Below are positions 2,283 through 24,969 of a stretch of 24,969 bases of DNA, piece after piece. The notes under the pieces were generated by a model. It had not been told where the DNA came from and ran no database searches. It saw nothing but the letters and a program-made list of their open reading frames with translations. The stretch comes from a virus. Every line of letters starts with the position of its first letter. Position 1 is the stretch's first letter. The stretch covers positions 1 through 24,969 of the IMG/VR virus record IMGVR_UViG_3300049893_001444; one strand, 5' to 3'. A program made the position numbers and the translations under genes.

Positions 2283-4787
2283 ATGGCCTGGCCAAATTTT
2301 TTAAGCCGCCGCGATCTACCTAGCCAGCCTGCCCTACCTGCACGACGAAACCCCGAAATAGAGCCCGATGATTTTTCCGCTATCTATGCCTTACAGGCCA
2401 GGATTGCCGACCATTTTAAAAAATCTATGTCCTACGCCAACTATGTCGCGTGGGATAACGTCGATGACCAAGGCGGCTACTTCGGCACCGAGTTTGAGAT
2501 CAGATCGAACGCTGGCCGCATCAAGAGCCTTTATGCTCGTGAGCCATGGGTATGGGCCTCGGCAACGCTGGTAGCAAGATCCCTGTGCGTGTTGCCCTAC
2601 AAGGCCTACGTTCCAGGCACGGACCAAGAGATAGTAAATCACCCGGTAACCATGGTCATGAGGCAGGGCACGCCTACCTTGTCGCCGATCGCCACGCGCT
2701 GGCTGCAAATGCTCGATGTAATGCTAGGCGGCAATAGCATCTTGATCCTAGAGCCCGACATGAAAACCGTAGCCGGGATCGCGCCGATCGAGCTGGTCAA
2801 CTTTCAATACTCTAAGGATAGCAGCCAGATCGAATACGTCGACGTTTACGCCTACGGCGGCGATCAGAAGGCGGCAAGGTTCCCATACTCGCAGTGCGTG
2901 CATACGAAATACCCTAACCCCTATAACCCGTTTTATGGCCTTAGCCCGTTTATCGCGGCAGCCAGGCCGTTGCTATCAGACCGCTACGCCAGCGAGTTTG
3001 ATATGGCCTTTTATCTTAGAGGCGGCACGGCTAGCGGCGTGATCGAGACGACCGAGGAAATCTCAAAGAGCCGGTTCCAAAGGCTCATGCGAACCTTTGA
3101 AGCCAGTTTCACCGGCAGGTCGAATTGGTGGAGGACCCTCTTCCTTCCGAAGGGTACGGCATGGAAATCTGCACAGCTGACGCCGGCTGAGGCGCAGCAC
3201 CTAGACAAGCTCAAGGACAATCGCAAGGTCATTCTAGCTGTGCTCGGCATACCGCCTAGCATGGTAGGACTCATCGAGGACGTAAACCGCGCCACGGCAG
3301 AGCAGCAAGAGCGGGCCCTATGGGCAAACCTGCTCACGCCTATGGCAATCTTTAACGCCGATGGCTGGAACGCATCTAGCCTTGTGCGTGACACATACAA
3401 GGGCAAGGTCGAGGTCAAGCCAGACTTCTCAGCGGTCGAGGCAGTCGAGGGCTTTGTCGCTGCAAGGCGTGAGCGATCGGAAGCCATGTCGCCGTATTTC
3501 TTTATCGATGAGATCAGGGAAAAGGTATGGAAGGCGGAACCACTACCCGACGGCTTAGGCCAGCGTCTAGTTGCCGAGGTCAAGCCAGCCATGCCGACTT
3601 TAGCCTTGGCAGCTGGCGGCATTTCCACGCGCATGGCGGCGATACCTGATGGCATGTCTGTTCAAGCTTTGTATTTCCTCAAGGCGCAATTTGGCAAAGC
3701 AGAGGACGCGCAGCAATGGGCTAGGGAGCACGGCTTTGCAACGGCGCCGGTCCATGAAATGGCCGACGAATGGATGATCGAGCAAGAGGGCCTAGACCTT
3801 TACGAGCGCGAAACCATGAAACGTGTAACCCTTGAGGATGGCGTCAATGCAAACATAGGCGCTCGCAATCGCGTCGACGACAAGGCCGCCAAGGCAGCTA
3901 TCTTTAAAAGGGTAAAAGAGACGGCCATAGCAAGCCAGAACCGCGTGGAAACCAAGCTAGCCAAAGACTTCGAGGCAGCGCTTGCTAAATACGTTGAGGC
4001 TCTAGTTCTTGCCGCCAAGACGGCACTAGAGCGCAAGGCCAATGTGCAGGCGCATCTTGATGGCAAGGCAAGCGAGCGGCGAGAGATTTGGGCAGAGAAT
4101 GTGATACCGGTCCTTGAGAGGGCATTAGATCGCGGGTTCTCAGTCGGCCTTTCACAAGTTAGACTGTTTGACAAGGTGCAAATCAAAGAGGTTCGAGAGG
4201 GGTTTCCGGCGTTGAACGAAACAGACCGCCAAGCCGTCGATGTACTGCGTGAGCGCACGCGGTCTGGTAGGCGTGAAGTGCTGGCCAAACGTGGGCTAGA
4301 TCGATTCGTAGGGCTTGATAGACGGCAGACCGAGCAGGTCATGCAGATCATCGAGGACGGCGAAAACGACGGTAAGACCTTCGAGCAGATCGCCCAAACT
4401 ATCCGGCGTGACTTCGGCGAGGCTTACGGCAATCAGGCGAGGACTATTGTCAGGACGGAAATCCTTAGTGCAGTATCAGAGGGCCTTGCATGGAACCACG
4501 ACGTTTTGGGCCAGGTCTTTTCAGAGGTCCAAAAGCAATGGATACATCAGGGCGATGCTGGCTTGAATGACGACGCCCGCGAGGAACACGCAGCCCTTGA
4601 GGATGATCTGAAATCGGGCGATGATGCTTGGTCAGTGATCGACAGCAAAACAGGTGAGGCCTATACCTTGCGTTATCCTCGCGATCCCTCAGCACCGGCA
4701 TCAGGCGTGATCAACTGCCGTTGCTCTATGGTGACCGTCATACCAGATAGCGCAACGTCCAACGCCGACGCCATACTCGAAGGATAA
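2283..4787 (+). CDS. Portal protein fused to MuF-like minor head domain
   Basis: Forms the dodecameric vertex through which DNA is packaged, with an attached head-morphogenesis domain. Residues ~70-380 match HK97/lambdoid-type portals: REPWVWASATLVARSLCVLP, then a GNS-containing stretch, a NPYNPFYGLSP loop, LRGG, and a PPSMVGL segment followed by an ATAEQQ motif. Residues ~458-485 carry a small motif of the WAREHGF type that occurs as a linker domain in phage capsid proteins. Residues ~520-670 are helical and charged. Residues ~672-830 match the Mu protein F / SPP1 gp7 family, with RTEI, a QWIHQGD segment, an acidic REEHAALE and the hallmark INCRCS near the end. At 834 aa it is about twice a normal portal, consistent with fusion of two usually separate genes. 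Upstream junction to terL is 1 base; the protease starts 7 bases downstream. Confidence 0.9.
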   Translation: MAWPNFLSRRDLPSQPALPARRNPEIEPDDFSAIYALQARIADHFKKSMSYANYVAWDNVDDQGGYFGTEFEIRSNAGRIKSLYAREPWVWASATLVARSLCVLPYKAYVPGTDQEIVNHPVTMVMRQGTPTLSPIATRWLQMLDVMLGGNSILILEPDMKTVAGIAPIELVNFQYSKDSSQIEYVDVYAYGGDQKAARFPYSQCVHTKYPNPYNPFYGLSPFIAAARPLLSDRYASEFDMAFYLRGGTASGVIETTEEISKSRFQRLMRTFEASFTGRSNWWRTLFLPKGTAWKSAQLTPAEAQHLDKLKDNRKVILAVLGIPPSMVGLIEDVNRATAEQQERALWANLLTPMAIFNADGWNASSLVRDTYKGKVEVKPDFSAVEAVEGFVAARRERSEAMSPYFFIDEIREKVWKAEPLPDGLGQRLVAEVKPAMPTLALAAGGISTRMAAIPDGMSVQALYFLKAQFGKAEDAQQWAREHGFATAPVHEMADEWMIEQEGLDLYERETMKRVTLEDGVNANIGARNRVDDKAAKAAIFKRVKETAIASQNRVETKLAKDFEAALAKYVEALVLAAKTALERKANVQAHLDGKASERREIWAENVIPVLERALDRGFSVGLSQVRLFDKVQIKEVREGFPALNETDRQAVDVLRERTRSGRREVLAKRGLDRFVGLDRRQTEQVMQIIEDGENDGKTFEQIAQTIRRDFGEAYGNQARTIVRTEILSAVSEGLAWNHDVLGQVFSEVQKQWIHQGDAGLNDDAREEHAALEDDLKSGDDAWSVIDSKTGEAYTLRYPRDPSAPASGVINCRCSMVTVIPDSATSNADAILEG

Positions 4788-8522: not shown

Positions 8523-9072
8523 CGCGAGAAACAACTTCACAGGCACCAAGATCAGGCCAAAGACCGGCGCGCTAATGAACGCCATCTTTAGCGGTTACGA
8601 GATATCTAAGAACCGCAAGGATATCGTCGGCGGCGTGGTCGGCGTGAAATCGCGCAAGGGACGCAGCGGCACTAGGCCCTATGGACGCATACACGAGTAT
8701 GGCGGCACCATAAAGCCGGTAAAGGCTAAGAACCTATGGATACCCCTGCTAGGGCCTAAGTCGAGCGGCCTAGCTGGCCGTTTCAAAAACATGACGCCCA
8801 GCGACTTTGTTGCAGCGATGCAGGCTAGCAATGATCCAACAGCTAGGTTTGCGATCATACCTGGCCGCAGCAATCCCGTGGCTATCGTCACGCTCAAACG
8901 CCAGTACAAAAGCGGCAAGGTCAAGAGCAAGATCATCGCCATGTTTTCTTTGCGTAAGAGCGTGGAAATGCCGGAAAGGCCATACATCAGACCAGCGATT
9001 GCCGAGGCTTTGGCAGGCCATCAAGAGCGCGTCGAAAACGAGCTGGCATCACTAGATAAGGATCATAGCTAA
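8395..9072 (+). CDS. HK97 gp10-like head-tail joining / tail completion protein
   Basis: Probably a neck or tail-completion protein. The 225 aa carry the family pattern: an N-terminal helix, TGALMNAIFSGYE, the small basic YGRIHEYGGTIKPVKAK stretch, an aromatic-containing LWIPLLGP, and a PERPYIRPAI motif close to the C-terminus. The start is GTG at 8395 with GCGAGGA as ribosome site; an in-frame TAA 18 bases upstream rules out a longer start. It overlaps the small membrane ORF by 128 bases and ends in TAATG with the next gene. It is longer than many gp10-like proteins, with an extra region at ~110-165. Confidence 0.82.
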   Translation: MARIYEIRQLAAVIKRISDNTRLAEIRALIRTTQKAELLAKTNARNNFTGTKIRPKTGALMNAIFSGYEISKNRKDIVGGVVGVKSRKGRSGTRPYGRIHEYGGTIKPVKAKNLWIPLLGPKSSGLAGRFKNMTPSDFVAAMQASNDPTARFAIIPGRSNPVAIVTLKRQYKSGKVKSKIIAMFSLRKSVEMPERPYIRPAIAEALAGHQERVENELASLDKDHS

Positions 9073-9542
9073 TGGGCAGCTCTTTGCGCTCCGATATTGG
9101 ATTAGCCATCAAGGCAAGGCTGGCGACTATCACGGCAGCCAATGGCTACGCGGCTGATCTTAAGGCGGTATACTATGACGAGATACCTATGGGCATGGAG
9201 CTATCAAGTGAGCAGCTGCCTGCCCTGTTCCTGCTCGATGACGGGCAAAACCATAACCACCTGCATGGCGTGATCGAGGTACAATGGTCACTGAGGATGC
9301 AGGTCTTTGCTGGCGAAAACGAAAGCGACGAATACTTGAACAAGATCATCAGAGCAGTCGCCAAAGCACTATGGGCAAATAGCCCTACAGCGGAAGTAAA
9401 CGACCAGTTTAGGTCCATACATCCATCGATATATCAGCTGACAAGCGTGGGTGACGAAACCGATCTGCATATGATCGACAGCAACCGCGTGGCTACCATT
9501 CGGGCAATAGTCCATTACCGGACGAAACCATATAATTTATAG
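9072..9542 (+). CDS. Tail terminator-like protein
   Basis: Likely caps the tail tube and joins it to the neck, as lambda gpU and HK97 gp10 neighbours do. It is 156 aa with alternating helix and strand: an N-terminal helix LRSDIGLAIKARLATITA, then LPALFLLDDG, a strand-rich core (VIEVQWSLRMQVFAGE) and a helix with DEYLNKIIRAVAKALW, ending with a beta strand near TNRVATIRAIVHYR-like residues. Position between the gp10-like gene and the tail tube region fits the family. The ATG overlaps the preceding TAA by one base. Sequence identity to a named family is moderate only. Confidence 0.72.
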   Translation: MGSSLRSDIGLAIKARLATITAANGYAADLKAVYYDEIPMGMELSSEQLPALFLLDDGQNHNHLHGVIEVQWSLRMQVFAGENESDEYLNKIIRAVAKALWANSPTAEVNDQFRSIHPSIYQLTSVGDETDLHMIDSNRVATIRAIVHYRTKPYNL

Positions 9543-9555
9543 AGGGGTTTGAATC

Positions 9556-9960
9556 ATGGAAAATCGTTTTAGGTATCATGTCCGTTTTTGGGCGATGGCT
9601 TTGGTTTCGCTACTCTTGGCGGCCATCCCAGCTCAAGCTCAAGTCGTATTTTTTCAAAATACCCGTGTCGGCTCGCTCGTCAATTATCACACGACCGTTG
9701 GCACCACCACGGCTCTGGCGATCCCATCGGCATCGGTAAGCACCGCCATACTTGGATGGCAGATTTGCAATGATGCCGTGAACACGTCGACCTATCTGCT
9801 TGTGGGCAAGGCCGCCGACGTTGCAACCGATGGCGTGCAGCTCGACAAGGGCCAATGCTTCCTTTGCCAAAACTGCAATCAAGCAACGCTCAAGGCGACA
9901 AAGGTCAAGGCGCAAGCCGCGTCAAACGGCTATAGCGTCACGCAATACAAGCAACAGTGA
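9556..9960 (+). CDS. Secreted small protein with CxxCxxC motif (paralogue 1)
   Basis: A 134-residue protein with a clear Sec signal peptide: basic n-region to Arg10, hydrophobic core ~12-24, and an AQA cleavage site after residue 28. The mature ~106 residues form one domain containing WQICN, NTSTYLLVGK, DGVQLDKGQC and the motif C101-x2-C104-x2-C107, ending VTQYKQQ. The same domain forms the C-terminal third of the next gene. The fold looks like a small beta sandwich as in phage decoration domains, but with an added Cys cluster that could bind metal or form disulfides in the periplasm. It lies between tail terminator and tail tube and has an AGAGGGG ribosome site. Function is not recognised. 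A secreted, surface or decoration role is inferred only. Confidence 0.8.
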   Translation: MENRFRYHVRFWAMALVSLLLAAIPAQAQVVFFQNTRVGSLVNYHTTVGTTTALAIPSASVSTAILGWQICNDAVNTSTYLLVGKAADVATDGVQLDKGQCFLCQNCNQATLKATKVKAQAASNGYSVTQYKQQ

Positions 9961-9995
9961 TCGCCTAAAACCAAACACCAAAGGGAGGGGTAAAA

Positions 9996-10742
9996 ATGAA
10001 ACTAAAAACAATACTCGCGGCATTTGCCTTGATGATTTTTCCAGCCTTGTTAGAGGCGCAGACTGCGCCGCCTGGCAAGGCAGTAACCGAGGTCACGCAC
10101 ACCAAAGACCAAGCCGGTCTGACCGTGGCCGAGGCATCCGACTTCACGACCGTTGCAGATAGCAGCGGGAACCTTGGCGGAACCTATTTCTATTTTTACG
10201 ATGCCGGTAACGTGCATTGCTATCAGCCTTGGTACGATGTTGATAACGGTGATTCTGCGCCTACTGCCGTGTCTGGCTGCACGCTTGTCGAGGTCGATAT
10301 CGCCGAAAACGATACCGCCGCGACTGTAGCAGGTAACACGCGCACCGCGTTAAACACTGCGCCATACAGCACATACTTTGCCATAACCGGCGCGACTGAT
10401 CATGTCATCGTGACGAGCCTTACCAAAGGCACGGCCAATGATGGCAACATCGGAACCTCTGGTTTTTCGGTGAGCAAGACGCAAGGTGTTAGCGGATCGC
10501 TAGCGATCGCAGCGGCATCTGTTGAGCCTGGCTTGCAAGGCTGGAAGGTCTGCAACTATGCAATCAACACGTCGACATGGCTCGCCGTAGGAAAGTCTAC
10601 GCTCGATCCGGATACCGATGGCGTAAGGCTGGCCAAAGGCAAATGCCTTGAGTGCCTATCATGTACGCCGAAAAGCCTCAAAGACGTTCGCTTGTCGGCG
10701 CAAGCGGCGGCCAATGATTACGCGGTCGTTCAGTTCAAATAA
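9996..10742 (+). CDS. Secreted two-domain protein with CxxCxxC domain (paralogue 2)
   Basis: A 248-residue protein with a signal peptide (KLK n-region, hydrophobic 5-19, LEA cleavage site after residue 21) and one of the strongest ribosome sites in the window (AAGGGAGGGG). Residues ~58-165 form a beta domain with a GTYFYFYDAG start, DVDNGDSAP, and a TAATVAGNTRTALN helix, resembling the IN-type domain repeated in phage tail and fibre proteins. Residues ~180-248 are paralogous to the preceding gene: WKVCN, NTSTWLAVGK, DGVRLAKGKC and C217-x2-C220-x2-C223. Two extra Cys occur near residues 73 and 89. It lies directly ahead of the tail tube gene. Function is unknown; a virion-attached or periplasmic binding role is inference. 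Confidence 0.82.
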   Translation: MKLKTILAAFALMIFPALLEAQTAPPGKAVTEVTHTKDQAGLTVAEASDFTTVADSSGNLGGTYFYFYDAGNVHCYQPWYDVDNGDSAPTAVSGCTLVEVDIAENDTAATVAGNTRTALNTAPYSTYFAITGATDHVIVTSLTKGTANDGNIGTSGFSVSKTQGVSGSLAIAAASVEPGLQGWKVCNYAINTSTWLAVGKSTLDPDTDGVRLAKGKCLECLSCTPKSLKDVRLSAQAAANDYAVVQFK

Positions 10743-21137: not shown

Positions 21138-21531
21138 TCCATACCGGCATATCATCAAAAAGTTTTTGAGGATGCGTTGGCGTTTCGATTACCACGACGG
21201 CACGCACCGCGCAGGCCTATGGGATGAGGCAGGGAAAAGGCCAAGGGAAAAATGGTCTTACCAGCCGTCAAACGGTATGCTCAAGGCATCCATCGAAGTG
21301 GTCGATAAAAGCGGCGTGCCTTATCTGGCCGTGTCTGTTCCGGCCCATGACTTTAAACGGTTCGAGTATCACGCGGTAGCGATAGTCAAGAACGTCATAG
21401 CGTTTAACGGCAGCCAAGACCTAGATCGAAACATCATCGGCATGAGCATCTACACAAACAGCGGCAGAAAAATAACGATAAATTGCGATGCAACGCATTT
21501 CAATCACGAGATCAAGGAGTGCATTTCATGA
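21124..21531 (+). CDS. Hypothetical tail-tip protein
   Basis: A 135-residue protein beginning inside the end of the preceding gene (14-base overlap) and ending in ATGA with the fibre. It has a basic N-terminus (IIKKFLRMRWRF), then a beta-rich middle with LKASIEVVDKSGVPYLAV and an HDFKRFEYHAVAIVK strand region. No catalytic motif or signal peptide is visible. Its tight overlaps on both sides suggest translational coupling with the tip and fibre genes. Confidence 0.65.
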   Translation: MHLVDPYRHIIKKFLRMRWRFDYHDGTHRAGLWDEAGKRPREKWSYQPSNGMLKASIEVVDKSGVPYLAVSVPAHDFKRFEYHAVAIVKNVIAFNGSQDLDRNIIGMSIYTNSGRKITINCDATHFNHEIKECIS

Positions 21532-24500
21532 GATTTCTAGCATTGTTTTTGAGCTTGTTTGTAGGCGTGGCATCGCTCGCAGACAACGTGACGAGCGTGA
21601 GTAGGTTACAGCTAGATCATCCCAACATGGGACACACTGGCGGTGCTGCGCTGCATACCCATATCAATGACATTTATGTAAAGGTCGGCGATAACGTCGC
21701 CACGCGATACAAGGAATATACCGGCATTGCAAATAGCGCCGTGACTACCTACGAGCACAATCTGAACGTGCCGTTTTCCGATATGGTGCTAGTCCTCTGG
21801 TCTGGTGTGGGATCTGCAAAGACCAGGATCGAAAACCCAACGGCATCCGGCTGGACGATTGCGGCCACGCCTTCCTTTCTCAAGACCAAGGTAAACGTAA
21901 CCGCGCCAAGCTCTGGCGGCCCGCATAGCTTTACGGTCGAGATCCATTCGGGACTAAGAGCATTGTCCACGGTAAACCCTTCAAACGTGACGATAACCGG
22001 AAACGTCATCGAGGGATTTTCCACGCTGCTTTTGACCAGCACGACGGTTTATGATTGGCTGAGATTTCAAGAATCAGGCGGTAGCGACTATGTGCAAATG
22101 CAATCGCCTGCCCTTGCATCCAGCTATACTCTGACCTTACCAGCGACCGACGGCAACGCCGATGAGGTTTTGATCAACAGCGACGGCAGCGGGACCATGA
22201 CCTTCGGCAAGGTCGCTAATGCCAACGTGGCCTCTGCCGCGGCGATCGACTATAGCAAGCTGAACCTCAGCAATAGCATCGTGAACGGCGATGTAAACTC
22301 ATCGGCTGCAATCGCCTACAGCAAATTGAACCTAAGCAATAGCATCGTGAACGGCGACGTAAACGCATCGGCAGCAATAGACGCGACCAAGCTAGGTACT
22401 GGCACGGTCGACAATACGGAGCTGGGATATCTAAACGGCATAACCTCTGCCGTGCAAACCCAGCTTGATGCCAAGCTAAACAAGTCTGGCGGCGTGATGA
22501 CGGGATCGATCACGCTAGCAGGTGATGCCTCTAACCCGCTTGAGCCAGTAACTAAGCAGCAATTTGACGCAGGCCTAAACGGTATCGCATGGAAACAGCC
22601 AGTAAGAACGGCATCAAGTGCAGCGGGAACGCTCGCAACTGACTTTGAAAACGGCGATAGCGTGGGTGGTGTCACCATTGCAACTAATGACCGCATCCTA
22701 CTTAAAAATCAGGTTACGACTTCGGAAAACGGCATTTATCTGGTCAATGCCTCTGGCGCGCCAAGTCGTTCGGCTGATGCCGATGCTTACACTGAGCTAA
22801 ACGGTGCTGCGGTGATAGTGTCAGAGGGCACCTATGCGAATACTGGTTATTACCAATCTACTGAACTAACCAGCTTTTCCGGGCAAGTTTGGTTTCAGAA
22901 TTTCGGCACTGGTCTTTATCTTGCCGATGGCAACGGCATAGAGCTAAGCGGATCAACATTTAGCCTGGAGCTTGATGGCAACACGTTATCCAAGAGCGCG
23001 ACCGGCCTTAAGGTCGAGGAAGGAAACCTCACACTAGACAATATCAGCGGCACTCTTAGTGTGACCAAAGGTGGTACTGGCATCGCCAGCGGAACAAGCG
23101 GCGGCGTTCCTTATTACTCGGCATCTACCACGATAGCCAGCTCTGGCGCGTTAGGCCTTAATGGCGTGGTCTTAGGCGGCGGTGCTGGTAGCTCGCCGAC
23201 CACGACGGCAGCCGGTTCAGCCTATCAATCTTTGCGCGTGCCATCGGGCGGTGGTGCGCCAGCCTTCGGTGCTCTTGACGTTAGCCAGTCTGCGGCAGTA
23301 ACTGGAACACTTCAAGCTAGTAACGGTGGTACAGGGATAACATCACTTGGATCTGGAATACCTGCATTTTTAGGCACACCTAGCAGTTCTAATTTAGCCT
23401 CAGCCGTTACTGATGAAACTGGTACTGGATCGGCTGTGTTTGCTACGACGCCAACACTCGTAACCCCAAGAATCGATGACGCGCTAAACCTTGAGCAGAT
23501 AGCAACGCCTGCAAATCCGTCATCAGGTTTTACCAAAGTTTACCCTAAGACTGATGGCTTGCTTTACAAGCTCGACTCGGCAGGCAATGAAGTGCTAGTC
23601 GGCAGCGGCTCTGGTGCTGGCGAGATCAATATCGTCATCAACGCAGACGGCGACACCGCGCTAGACGGTGGCCGTACTGACGATGTAGGCGATTGGATTG
23701 ACAGCGGCACTGGCACGACTAGCACACGAGTAGACAGCTCAACACCGACGCAGATTCCTCTATATCCGACTAAGACTAACGCCATCAAGATCGCCAACGA
23801 CGGCAGCAGCACAGGCTACACACGCCTACGCATGACGCTCCCGGTAGCATTGCAAAATCGCAAGCTCAAGATAGCTTGGCAGCAGCTTTACAGCACTAGC
23901 ACTGCTTATGTGTCTGGCGATTTCAAGCTAGAGCTTTACAGCAATGCTAGCGCTGACTATAGCGGCGCATACACTCCTATATCGCTTTCCACCGACGCCT
24001 CTGGTGTTACGAGTATTCCCGCACTAAACGGGCAATTCCAAACTACCTTCGATACGTCCACAGCTAGCTATTTGGAGCTGAGAATCACGCGGGTAGCGGG
24101 GGCTGCGAGCAGCTATATAGCGCTAAATGCGGTGACTGTGGGACCGGGGATACAGCCGCAGGGTGCGGTGGTGGGGGAGTGGCAGAGTTATACACCAAGT
24201 TTCAATGGAATGTCGGCATCTAATATAAATGCTAGGCATCGCAGAAACGGAACGAGCGTTGATTTAGAGATTACTTTCAGCACAGCGGCATCAGCAGCAG
24301 AGGCCAGGATATCTTTACCGACAGGTTTAACAGCAACTAGCTTATCTAGCAATAAAGAGCTAGTCGGTAGAGCTTCAGTTGGTACAAGTTCCGCATCTAC
24401 TAGAAAGAACTACGCGGCTATAGGTGTCAGCGCCCAGCAATATATAGCATTAGGAGCAGATGATTATACTACGGCGGCAAACCCTTTCAGCTTAGTTGTA

Positions 24501-24969
24501 TGGAATGACGTTGGGGCTGGTTTGTTTGTGTCAGTTAGGGCTTCTGTGCCAATCGCCGAATTTTCCGGCTCCGGCACTGTGAACGTGGCGCAGAACGATT
24601 TGGAGTATGCGAGTAATTCAACTACCGCTGATACGGACGATACGACAAATTTTGCTTATGGTCAGTCAGGATCTTTACTGCCTGGAACGCTAACCCAAGG
24701 GAGAAATAAAAGGGTTAGATTTTTAACTCCTTTTCAGGAAAACGAAACCGCACACGTAGAAGTTCAAATTGGCGGCTCCGGTAACCCATGGATACCCGTT
24801 ACTGGATATAATGGCGTTGGTCCATTGCAAGAGCTGACAGTGCAAAACACGGTAGCCTATGGAGTTTCATGTCGGCGTGTAGCTGGAAGTACAACTGACA
24901 TAGATGTGCAATTTGGCCAATATGCTGCGAGCACAGGAGCAACATTTGCTTCTGCCGGTACTAACTGGG
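21528..24969 (+). CDS. Tail fibre, modular, with signal peptide (3'-partial)
   Basis: Open from ATG 21528 to the window edge, at least 1147 residues. AAGGAG at 21514-21519 gives an excellent ribosome site. The N-terminus MRFLALFLSLFVGVASLA reads as a Sec signal peptide with cleavage after residue 18. Then: a beta region to ~235; 22-residue repeats ~236-300 (YSKLNLSNSIVNGDVN) leading to NGITSAVQTQLDAKL; a common fibre domain ~353-460 (ATNDRILLKNQV, NGIYLVN); VTKGGTGI at ~513; VTDETGTGSAVF at ~626; a beta-sandwich ~700-868, perhaps carbohydrate-binding; and from ~880 an EWQSYTPS module of a type shared by many phage fibres. Codon use becomes more AT-rich from about base 24180. It should bind the host surface. 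The C-terminal receptor-binding end is outside the window. Confidence 0.88.
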   Translation, partial: MRFLALFLSLFVGVASLADNVTSVSRLQLDHPNMGHTGGAALHTHINDIYVKVGDNVATRYKEYTGIANSAVTTYEHNLNVPFSDMVLVLWSGVGSAKTRIENPTASGWTIAATPSFLKTKVNVTAPSSGGPHSFTVEIHSGLRALSTVNPSNVTITGNVIEGFSTLLLTSTTVYDWLRFQESGGSDYVQMQSPALASSYTLTLPATDGNADEVLINSDGSGTMTFGKVANANVASAAAIDYSKLNLSNSIVNGDVNSSAAIAYSKLNLSNSIVNGDVNASAAIDATKLGTGTVDNTELGYLNGITSAVQTQLDAKLNKSGGVMTGSITLAGDASNPLEPVTKQQFDAGLNGIAWKQPVRTASSAAGTLATDFENGDSVGGVTIATNDRILLKNQVTTSENGIYLVNASGAPSRSADADAYTELNGAAVIVSEGTYANTGYYQSTELTSFSGQVWFQNFGTGLYLADGNGIELSGSTFSLELDGNTLSKSATGLKVEEGNLTLDNISGTLSVTKGGTGIASGTSGGVPYYSASTTIASSGALGLNGVVLGGGAGSSPTTTAAGSAYQSLRVPSGGGAPAFGALDVSQSAAVTGTLQASNGGTGITSLGSGIPAFLGTPSSSNLASAVTDETGTGSAVFATTPTLVTPRIDDALNLEQIATPANPSSGFTKVYPKTDGLLYKLDSAGNEVLVGSGSGAGEINIVINADGDTALDGGRTDDVGDWIDSGTGTTSTRVDSSTPTQIPLYPTKTNAIKIANDGSSTGYTRLRMTLPVALQNRKLKIAWQQLYSTSTAYVSGDFKLELYSNASADYSGAYTPISLSTDASGVTSIPALNGQFQTTFDTSTASYLELRITRVAGAASSYIALNAVTVGPGIQPQGAVVGEWQSYTPSFNGMSASNINARHRRNGTSVDLEITFSTAASAAEARISLPTGLTATSLSSNKELVGRASVGTSSASTRKNYAAIGVSAQQYIALGADDYTTAANPFSLVVWNDVGAGLFVSVRASVPIAEFSGSGTVNVAQNDLEYASNSTTADTDDTTNFAYGQSGSLLPGTLTQGRNKRVRFLTPFQENETAHVEVQIGGSGNPWIPVTGYNGVGPLQELTVQNTVAYGVSCRRVAGSTTDIDVQFGQYAASTGATFASAGTNW
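22233..22364 (+). repeat. 66-bp direct repeat in the tail fibre gene
   Basis: Two near-identical 66-base units at 22233-22298 and 22299-22364, with a decayed third beginning at 22365. They encode YSKLNLSNSIVNGDVN and neighbours. Such short repeats usually form the shaft of trimeric fibres and can expand or contract by recombination. Confidence 0.88.

What the first reader, a model, noticed from the sequence alone, without database searches (positions are those of the whole stretch)
9556..10742. Pair of secreted CxxCxxC paralogues inside the tail-assembly operon
Two adjacent genes between the tail terminator and tail tube genes each begin with a clear Sec signal peptide and share a ~70-residue domain: WQICN/WKVCN, NTSTYLLVGK/NTSTWLAVGK, DGVQLDKGQC/DGVRLAKGKC and a conserved CxxCxxC. 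Cytoplasmically assembled tails do not need secreted parts, so these proteins probably work in the periplasm or at the cell surface, for example in exclusion of other phages, or they load onto virions by an unusual route. The Cys cluster could bind metal or form disulfides once exported. I do not recognise the family.
Basis: partly seen in the sequence, partly recalled or inferred. Interest (0 to 1): 0.8.

Follow-up and report, generated by a model that had tools for sequence, protein, structure and literature searches.

The report
Exported disulfide-rich proteins in tail operon
A group of uncultured bacterial viruses carries, in the middle of its tail-building genes, one to three small proteins that look made to be exported out of the cytoplasm and held together by disulfide bonds; this is unusual, because tails are built in the cytoplasm, and it points to an undescribed viral action at the host cell surface or an unusual way of decorating virus particles.

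Summary
P1 (9556-9960) and P2 (9996-10742) share a domain (49% identity over 87 residues, E 2e-26). Relatives occur in 22 further IMG/VR contigs and in no searched bacterial genome, phage record, Pfam or PHROG family. All 31 distinct members begin with a Sec-type signal peptide, against 9 of 209 other ORFs tested by the same rules; the signal sequence diverges far faster than the mature part. Cysteine evidence also points to export: 3.2% Cys against 0.6% elsewhere, an even number in 29 of 30, extra Cys in P2 mostly in pairs at three different sites. P1 is a predicted jelly-roll like many small, unexported phage proteins; P2 adds a domain resembling tail-sheath insertion domains. The genes are accessory: five relatives lack them, and one has them after the lysis genes. 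Two distant relatives hold unrelated signal-peptide proteins in the same slot, and the window's own tail-fibre-like gene also begins with a signal peptide. I conclude that these are late, exported accessory proteins built from virion-type domains. Blocking of re-adsorption is the likeliest role (about 0.4); loading onto virions after lysis is the main rival (about 0.3). No function was tested.

The parts
9072..9542 (+). tail terminator gene; left border of the slot
   Evidence: PHROG tail terminator families phrog_5078 / phrog_4204, E 1e-4
9556..9960 (+). P1, exported Cys4 jelly-roll protein, 134 aa
   Evidence: ORF with RBS; family in 22 other contigs
9556..9639 (+). P1 signal peptide, cleavage predicted AQA|QVV
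   Evidence: rule-based test; conserved in type but not in letters among relatives
9640..9957 (+). P1 mature protein, predicted jelly-roll, 4 invariant Cys
   Evidence: AlphaFold2 pLDDT 90.5; alignment A7
9856..9876 (+). CxxCxxC of P1 (C101, C104, C107)
   Evidence: alignment
9996..10742 (+). P2, exported two-domain paralogue, 248 aa
   Evidence: ORF with RBS; 10 other distinct P2-type members
9996..10058 (+). P2 signal peptide, cleavage predicted LEA|QTA
   Evidence: rule-based test
10125..10496 (+). P2 N-terminal domain resembling tail-sheath / baseplate insertion domains
   Evidence: model m0f7c51dcf5fc; VIA Z 9.0 over 90 residues, rmsd 2.2, to cyanophage A-1(L) sheath
10476..10739 (+). P2 C-terminal Cys4 domain shared with P1
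10767..12374 (+). probable tail tube / major tail gene; right border of the slot
   Evidence: position between terminator and tape measure; 24 related loci; no database match
21528..24969 (+). tail-fibre-like gene (3' end cut by the window) that also begins with a signal peptide
   Evidence: relatives

Best explanation
P1 and P2 are late, accessory phage proteins made from virion-type beta domains behind cleavable Sec signal peptides. They are made with the tail proteins, exported, locked by disulfides outside the cytoplasm (2 in P1, about 3 in P2), and act in the periplasm or at the surface of the infected cell. Their most likely job is to stop phages, including the cell's own progeny, from adsorbing to or injecting into a cell or cell debris that is already spent (superinfection exclusion and debris protection, in the manner of T5 Llp). 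Supported here by sequence: paralogy, signal peptides, paired Cys, co-location with tail genes, dispensability. Inferred: actual cleavage, final location, disulfide pairing, and the blocking role.
For: 31/31 signal peptides against 9/209 controls. Signal region 22-54% identical while mature parts are 73-79% identical, the usual mark of a real signal peptide. Cys 3.17% against 0.59%, even in 29/30, with extra P2 Cys mostly in pairs at different sites in different clades. The genes are absent from close relatives with the same tail tube: L019 is sister to the window clade, and L029, L033, L034, L037 also lack them. In G008 they sit about 22 kb away behind the lysis genes, with an empty slot, so they are not needed at that place for tail assembly. 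Copy number varies 1-3 and domain composition varies. Two more distant phages have unrelated signal-peptide proteins with an even number of Cys in the same slot (L035, L036). Precedent: T5 Llp is a periplasmic, disulfide-bonded phage protein that blocks the receptor FhuA (PMC9586334).
Against: No exclusion protein is detectably related. Exclusion proteins are usually made early (PMC9586334); these lie in the late operon. P1 and P2 evolve about as slowly as the tail tube (dN 0.16-0.22 against 0.14-0.18), not like arms-race genes. Both domains are of virion type. The fibre gene of the same phage also carries a signal peptide, which exclusion alone does not explain.
Confidence: 0.4

Rival explanations
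1. P1/P2 (and in some phages the tail fibre) are virion decorations that are exported, oxidised outside the cytoplasm, and attach to finished particles during or after lysis.
For: P1 has the fold of many small caudovirus proteins, one of which, probably tf_60 of Pseudomonas phage tf, is one of a tandem pair beside tail-fibre and particle proteins. The P2 N-domain resembles tail-sheath and T4 gp11-type domains, and single members hit PHROG tail sheath and baseplate-connector families. The window fibre and those of G001, G002 and G012 have signal peptides before a conserved N-terminal domain that starts directly at Met in most other relatives. Slow evolution like the tube. Preferred position next to the tail tube.
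Against: No tailed phage is known to me to assemble parts this way (own knowledge; searches showed none by title or abstract, and those papers were not read). The genes are dispensable and can sit far from tail genes. P1/P2 presence does not track the fibre signal peptide: most fibres in P1-bearing phages lack one.
Confidence: 0.3
2. P1/P2 act on the envelope in timing or completing lysis, or in protecting the envelope late in infection.
For: In G008 they directly follow endolysin, holin-like and spanin-like genes. Periplasmic, signal-peptide phage antiholins exist (T4 RI, PMC8385771).
Against: In all other contigs with readable context they are in the tail slot. The beta jelly-roll is unlike any lysis protein I know of.
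Confidence: 0.12
3. The exported subunits polymerise by intermolecular disulfides into an extracellular coat or fibre, like Bacillus endospore appendages (Ena).
For: Ena subunits are among the best fold matches (7a02 Z 7.7, rmsd 4.7, 91 aligned) and are disulfide-linked (PMC12921279); 1-3 tandem paralogues.
Against: At this Z unrelated cupins and plant-virus coats match about as well. The Cys-bearing N-terminal connector of Ena is missing: all P1 Cys are in the domain.
Confidence: 0.08
4. The hydrophobic N-termini are not export signals but membrane or assembly anchors of cytoplasmic tail parts, and the Cys cluster binds zinc.
For: CxxCxxC is a common zinc-binding spacing; weak LIM / zinc-finger hits (E 0.004-1). 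Encoded among tail genes.
Against: Positive n-region, uncharged core and small residues at -3/-1 in 31/31. Extra Cys mostly gained or lost in pairs at other sites. Dispensable.
Confidence: 0.05

Closest known systems
Small jelly-roll proteins of unknown function in tailed phages (e.g. tf_60/tf_61 of Pseudomonas phage tf, a protein of Gordonia phage Bakery)
   Same: Predicted fold (Foldseek against BFVD, E 1e-5 to 1e-3, TM about 0.6-0.7); tf has a tandem pair beside tail-fibre genes.
   Different: tf_60/tf_61 have no signal peptide and no CxxCxxC; sequence identity of the BFVD matches only 10-23%.
Insertion domain of contractile tail sheaths (cyanophage A-1(L), PhiTE, Milano) and T4 gp11-like connectors
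   Same: Fold of the P2 N-terminal domain (Z 9.0, 8.1, 8.0 and 6.5); weak PHROG hits of single members.
   Different: P2 is not a sheath: it lacks the other sheath domains, has a signal peptide, and no sheath gene was recognised in the window.
T5 Llp / Cor superinfection-exclusion lipoproteins
   Same: Small exported phage proteins; Llp has a disulfide (PMC9586334).
   Different: No sequence relation found, no lipobox in P1/P2, late tail operon instead of early expression, different size.
Bacillus endospore appendage subunits (Ena)
   Same: Jelly-roll fold, disulfides, paralogous copies.
   Different: No Cys-bearing N-terminal connector; fold similarity at the level of unrelated jelly-rolls.

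Membership tests
Sec-exported (signal peptidase I) proteins | positive n-region, hydrophobic core, small residues at -3/-1 | tested here: met
   31/31 members by a rule-based test, controls 9/209; SignalP not available
Sec-exported (signal peptidase I) proteins | cleavage and periplasmic or extracellular location | not testable with these tools
   needs fractionation and N-terminal mass spectrometry
T5 Llp / Cor exclusion lipoproteins | lipobox and lipid anchor | tested here: not met
   no Cys in the P1 or P2 signal peptides
T5 Llp / Cor exclusion lipoproteins | binding to an outer-membrane receptor and loss of adsorption | not testable with these tools
   host unknown
Endospore appendage (Ena) subunits | N-terminal connector carrying Cys that cross-links subunits | tested here: not met
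   first mature Cys of P1 is about residue 42, inside the domain; no Cys in the N-terminal arm of any P1
Endospore appendage (Ena) subunits | jelly-roll fold close to Ena1B | tested here: inconclusive
   Z 7.7, rmsd 4.7, 91 aligned, tied with cupins and other jelly-rolls
Small caudovirus jelly-roll proteins (tf_60-like) | same fold | tested here: met
   BFVD matches with E down to 1.5e-5
Small caudovirus jelly-roll proteins (tf_60-like) | cytoplasmic, no signal peptide | tested here: not met
   P1/P2 have signal peptides, tf_60/tf_61 do not
Tail sheath proteins | full multi-domain sheath | tested here: not met
   only the insertion-type domain matches, residues 23-146 of mature P2
Known anti-phage defence families | match to a PADLOC model | tested here: not met
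   no hit at E 0.1 for P1 and P2

The most novel reading that the evidence does not exclude
These phages export virion parts (small decorations, and in some lineages the tail fibre itself) through the host Sec pathway, oxidise the small ones outside the cytoplasm, and fit them to the particles during or after lysis: a two-compartment assembly of a tailed phage.
Probability: 0.25. Interest if true: 0.88.

Novelty: new variant of a known kind. Interest (0 to 1): 0.62.

Why it matters
Tailed-phage virion parts are thought to be made and assembled in the cytoplasm. A family in which virion-type domains are routinely placed behind signal peptides and rebuilt with disulfides, usually in one fixed place among tail genes, means either an undescribed class of late envelope-acting phage proteins or an assembly route outside the cytoplasm. 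The signal peptide on the fibre of the same phages makes the question directly testable by N-terminal proteomics of one isolate.

Tried and rejected
No relatives in two genome-contig scans (31 and 16 pattern hits, none confirmed), so the host is unknown. No relatives in phage records. A profile-profile comparison of P2 with the tail tube, to test whether P2's N-domain derives from the tube's N-terminal region, found nothing. Zinc finger considered and put low. The idea that fibre signal peptides serve disulfides in the fibre is not supported: the G001 fibre has no Cys. Perfect co-occurrence of fibre signal peptides with P1+P2 was looked for and not found. A 31-row alignment was too diverse for a genome scan.

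Full report
What is there. The window is a 24,969-base virus record holding the packaging, head and tail genes of a siphophage-like virus: terminase, portal fused to a head-morphogenesis domain, head proteins, head-tail adaptor, neck protein, tail terminator, the slot with P1 and P2, a probable tail tube, tape measure, and a fibre-like gene at the end. P1 (134 aa) and P2 (248 aa) lie between terminator and tube, each with its own ribosome-binding site. The paralogy is beyond doubt: 49% identity over 87 residues, E 2e-26.

The family. Scans of IMG/VR with single proteins and alignments found relatives in 22 contigs, some of them near-duplicates. There are two types: P1-like (about 105 aa mature) and P2-like (an extra N-terminal domain of about 120 aa). 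One to three copies occur per phage. Every complete member keeps four Cys: one in the 'ICND' motif and the CxxCxxC. No relatives were found in 84,980 bacterial and archaeal genomes by pattern scan, in 50,697 phage records, or in Pfam, PHROGs or PADLOC. A negative scan is a limit of these methods, not proof of absence.

Export. A rule-based signal-peptide test (positive n-region, uncharged core with mean hydropathy of at least 1.8, small residues at -3/-1), allowing alternative starts for family and controls alike, accepts 31 of 31 distinct members and 9 of 209 other ORFs (p 3e-31). Of the nine control hits only one looks genuine, the window's own fibre gene. Among the window and its two nearest relatives the signal regions are 22-54% identical and the mature parts 73-79%, so hydrophobic character is kept while the letters change. 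A second, independent line is the cysteines. Mature parts hold 3.17% Cys against 0.59% in other ORFs. The number is 4, 6 or 8 in 29 of 30 members. In the P2 N-domain extra Cys appear as a pair at 52/72 in the window clade, at 29/88 in another group, and as four at about 47/53/104/114 in a third; L041 holds one unpaired. Paired gain at different sites is what disulfides produce. I take export into an oxidising compartment as very likely (about 0.93), though not shown by experiment.

Not needed for the tail. The tail-tube tree places L019, which has an empty slot, as sister to the window clade (support 100/98); L029 and L033, also empty, group with phages that have three copies. L034 and L037 are empty too. 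Searches of the contigs behind these loci found no copy elsewhere, but they are fragments. In G008 the tube's slot is empty (terminator to tube gap about 12 bases) and P1+P2 lie about 22 kb away, directly behind endolysin, holin-like and spanin-like genes. The genes are therefore accessory and movable. In two more distant phages (L035, L036; tube 36-39% identical) the same slot holds other signal-peptide proteins with 6 and 2 mature Cys, with no detectable relation to P1. The slot, rather than one protein, seems to be the constant.

Folds. AlphaFold2 gives P1 a confident jelly-roll (pLDDT 90.5). Its best solved matches (PM2 spike P1, a cupin-like protein, Ena1B; Z about 8) are at the level where unrelated jelly-rolls match. 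Against viral models the best matches are small uncharacterised proteins of tailed phages. One, from Pseudomonas phage tf, agrees in length with tf_60, half of a tandem pair beside its tail-fibre gene, without signal peptide or the Cys motif; that link is inferred from organism and length, not from an accession match. The P2 model (pLDDT 82) has an N-terminal domain whose best matches are tail-sheath insertion domains (A-1(L) Z 9.0, rmsd 2.2 over 90 residues; PhiTE 8.1; Milano 8.0) and T4 gp11 (6.5), echoed by weak single-member PHROG hits to tail sheath and a baseplate-fibre connector. So two virion-type modules have been placed behind signal peptides.

The fibre. The last gene of the window (21528 onwards) is a fibre-like protein of at least 1147 residues that starts MRFLALFLSLFVGVASLADNV, with aaggag upstream. 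The protein has matches in 12 of 14 related contigs, nearly all covering its N-terminal domain. In the window, G001 (full gene, 1395 aa), G002 and G012 that domain follows a signal peptide; in the other contigs with a readable start it begins directly at Met. This was not in the finding and is, to me, the most surprising part, because it suggests that a virion part itself may be exported in some lineages.

Mechanism. The best-supported statement is limited: late, Sec-exported, disulfide-stabilised accessory proteins. For the role I weigh exclusion or debris protection (0.4) against loading onto virions after lysis (0.3), lysis-related action (0.12), an extracellular polymer (0.08) and a non-exported tail part (0.05). 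Dispensability, changing copy number, movement to the lysis region and replacement by unrelated exported proteins favour an accessory envelope function with the logic of T5 Llp, which is periplasmic, disulfide-bonded and blocks its receptor (PMC9586334). Virion-type domains, slow evolution (dN 0.16-0.22 against 0.14-0.18 for the tube, dS near saturation) and the possibly exported fibre favour loading onto virions. The evidence does not decide between them.

Limits. Signal peptides were judged by simple rules. The tail-tube name is by position. The host is unknown. Disulfide pairing is inferred from counts. Most contigs are fragments.

Noticed in passing
window 21528-24969; also L071 (G001), L051 (G002), L052 (G012): The tail-fibre-like gene starts with a signal peptide before a conserved N-terminal domain that in most other relatives starts directly at Met. 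A possibly exported virion fibre.
   Followed up: partly
L035 5182-5961 and L036 2942-3277: In two distant relatives the terminator/tube slot holds other signal-peptide proteins with 6 and 2 mature Cys, with no detectable relation to P1; by eye the two share a C-terminal beta domain.
   Followed up: partly
L046 9905-11070 (G008): P1 and P2 lie directly behind a lysis cassette instead of in the tail slot, while the tube of the same genome has an empty slot.
   Followed up: yes
window 2283-4787: Portal protein apparently fused to a head-morphogenesis domain: 834 aa, PHROG portal at residues 65-546 and head morphogenesis at 649-826.
   Followed up: no
G006:C1:24296-24667 (L058): The fibre match in G006 is read through one TAA stop, so its start and integrity are uncertain.
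   Followed up: no
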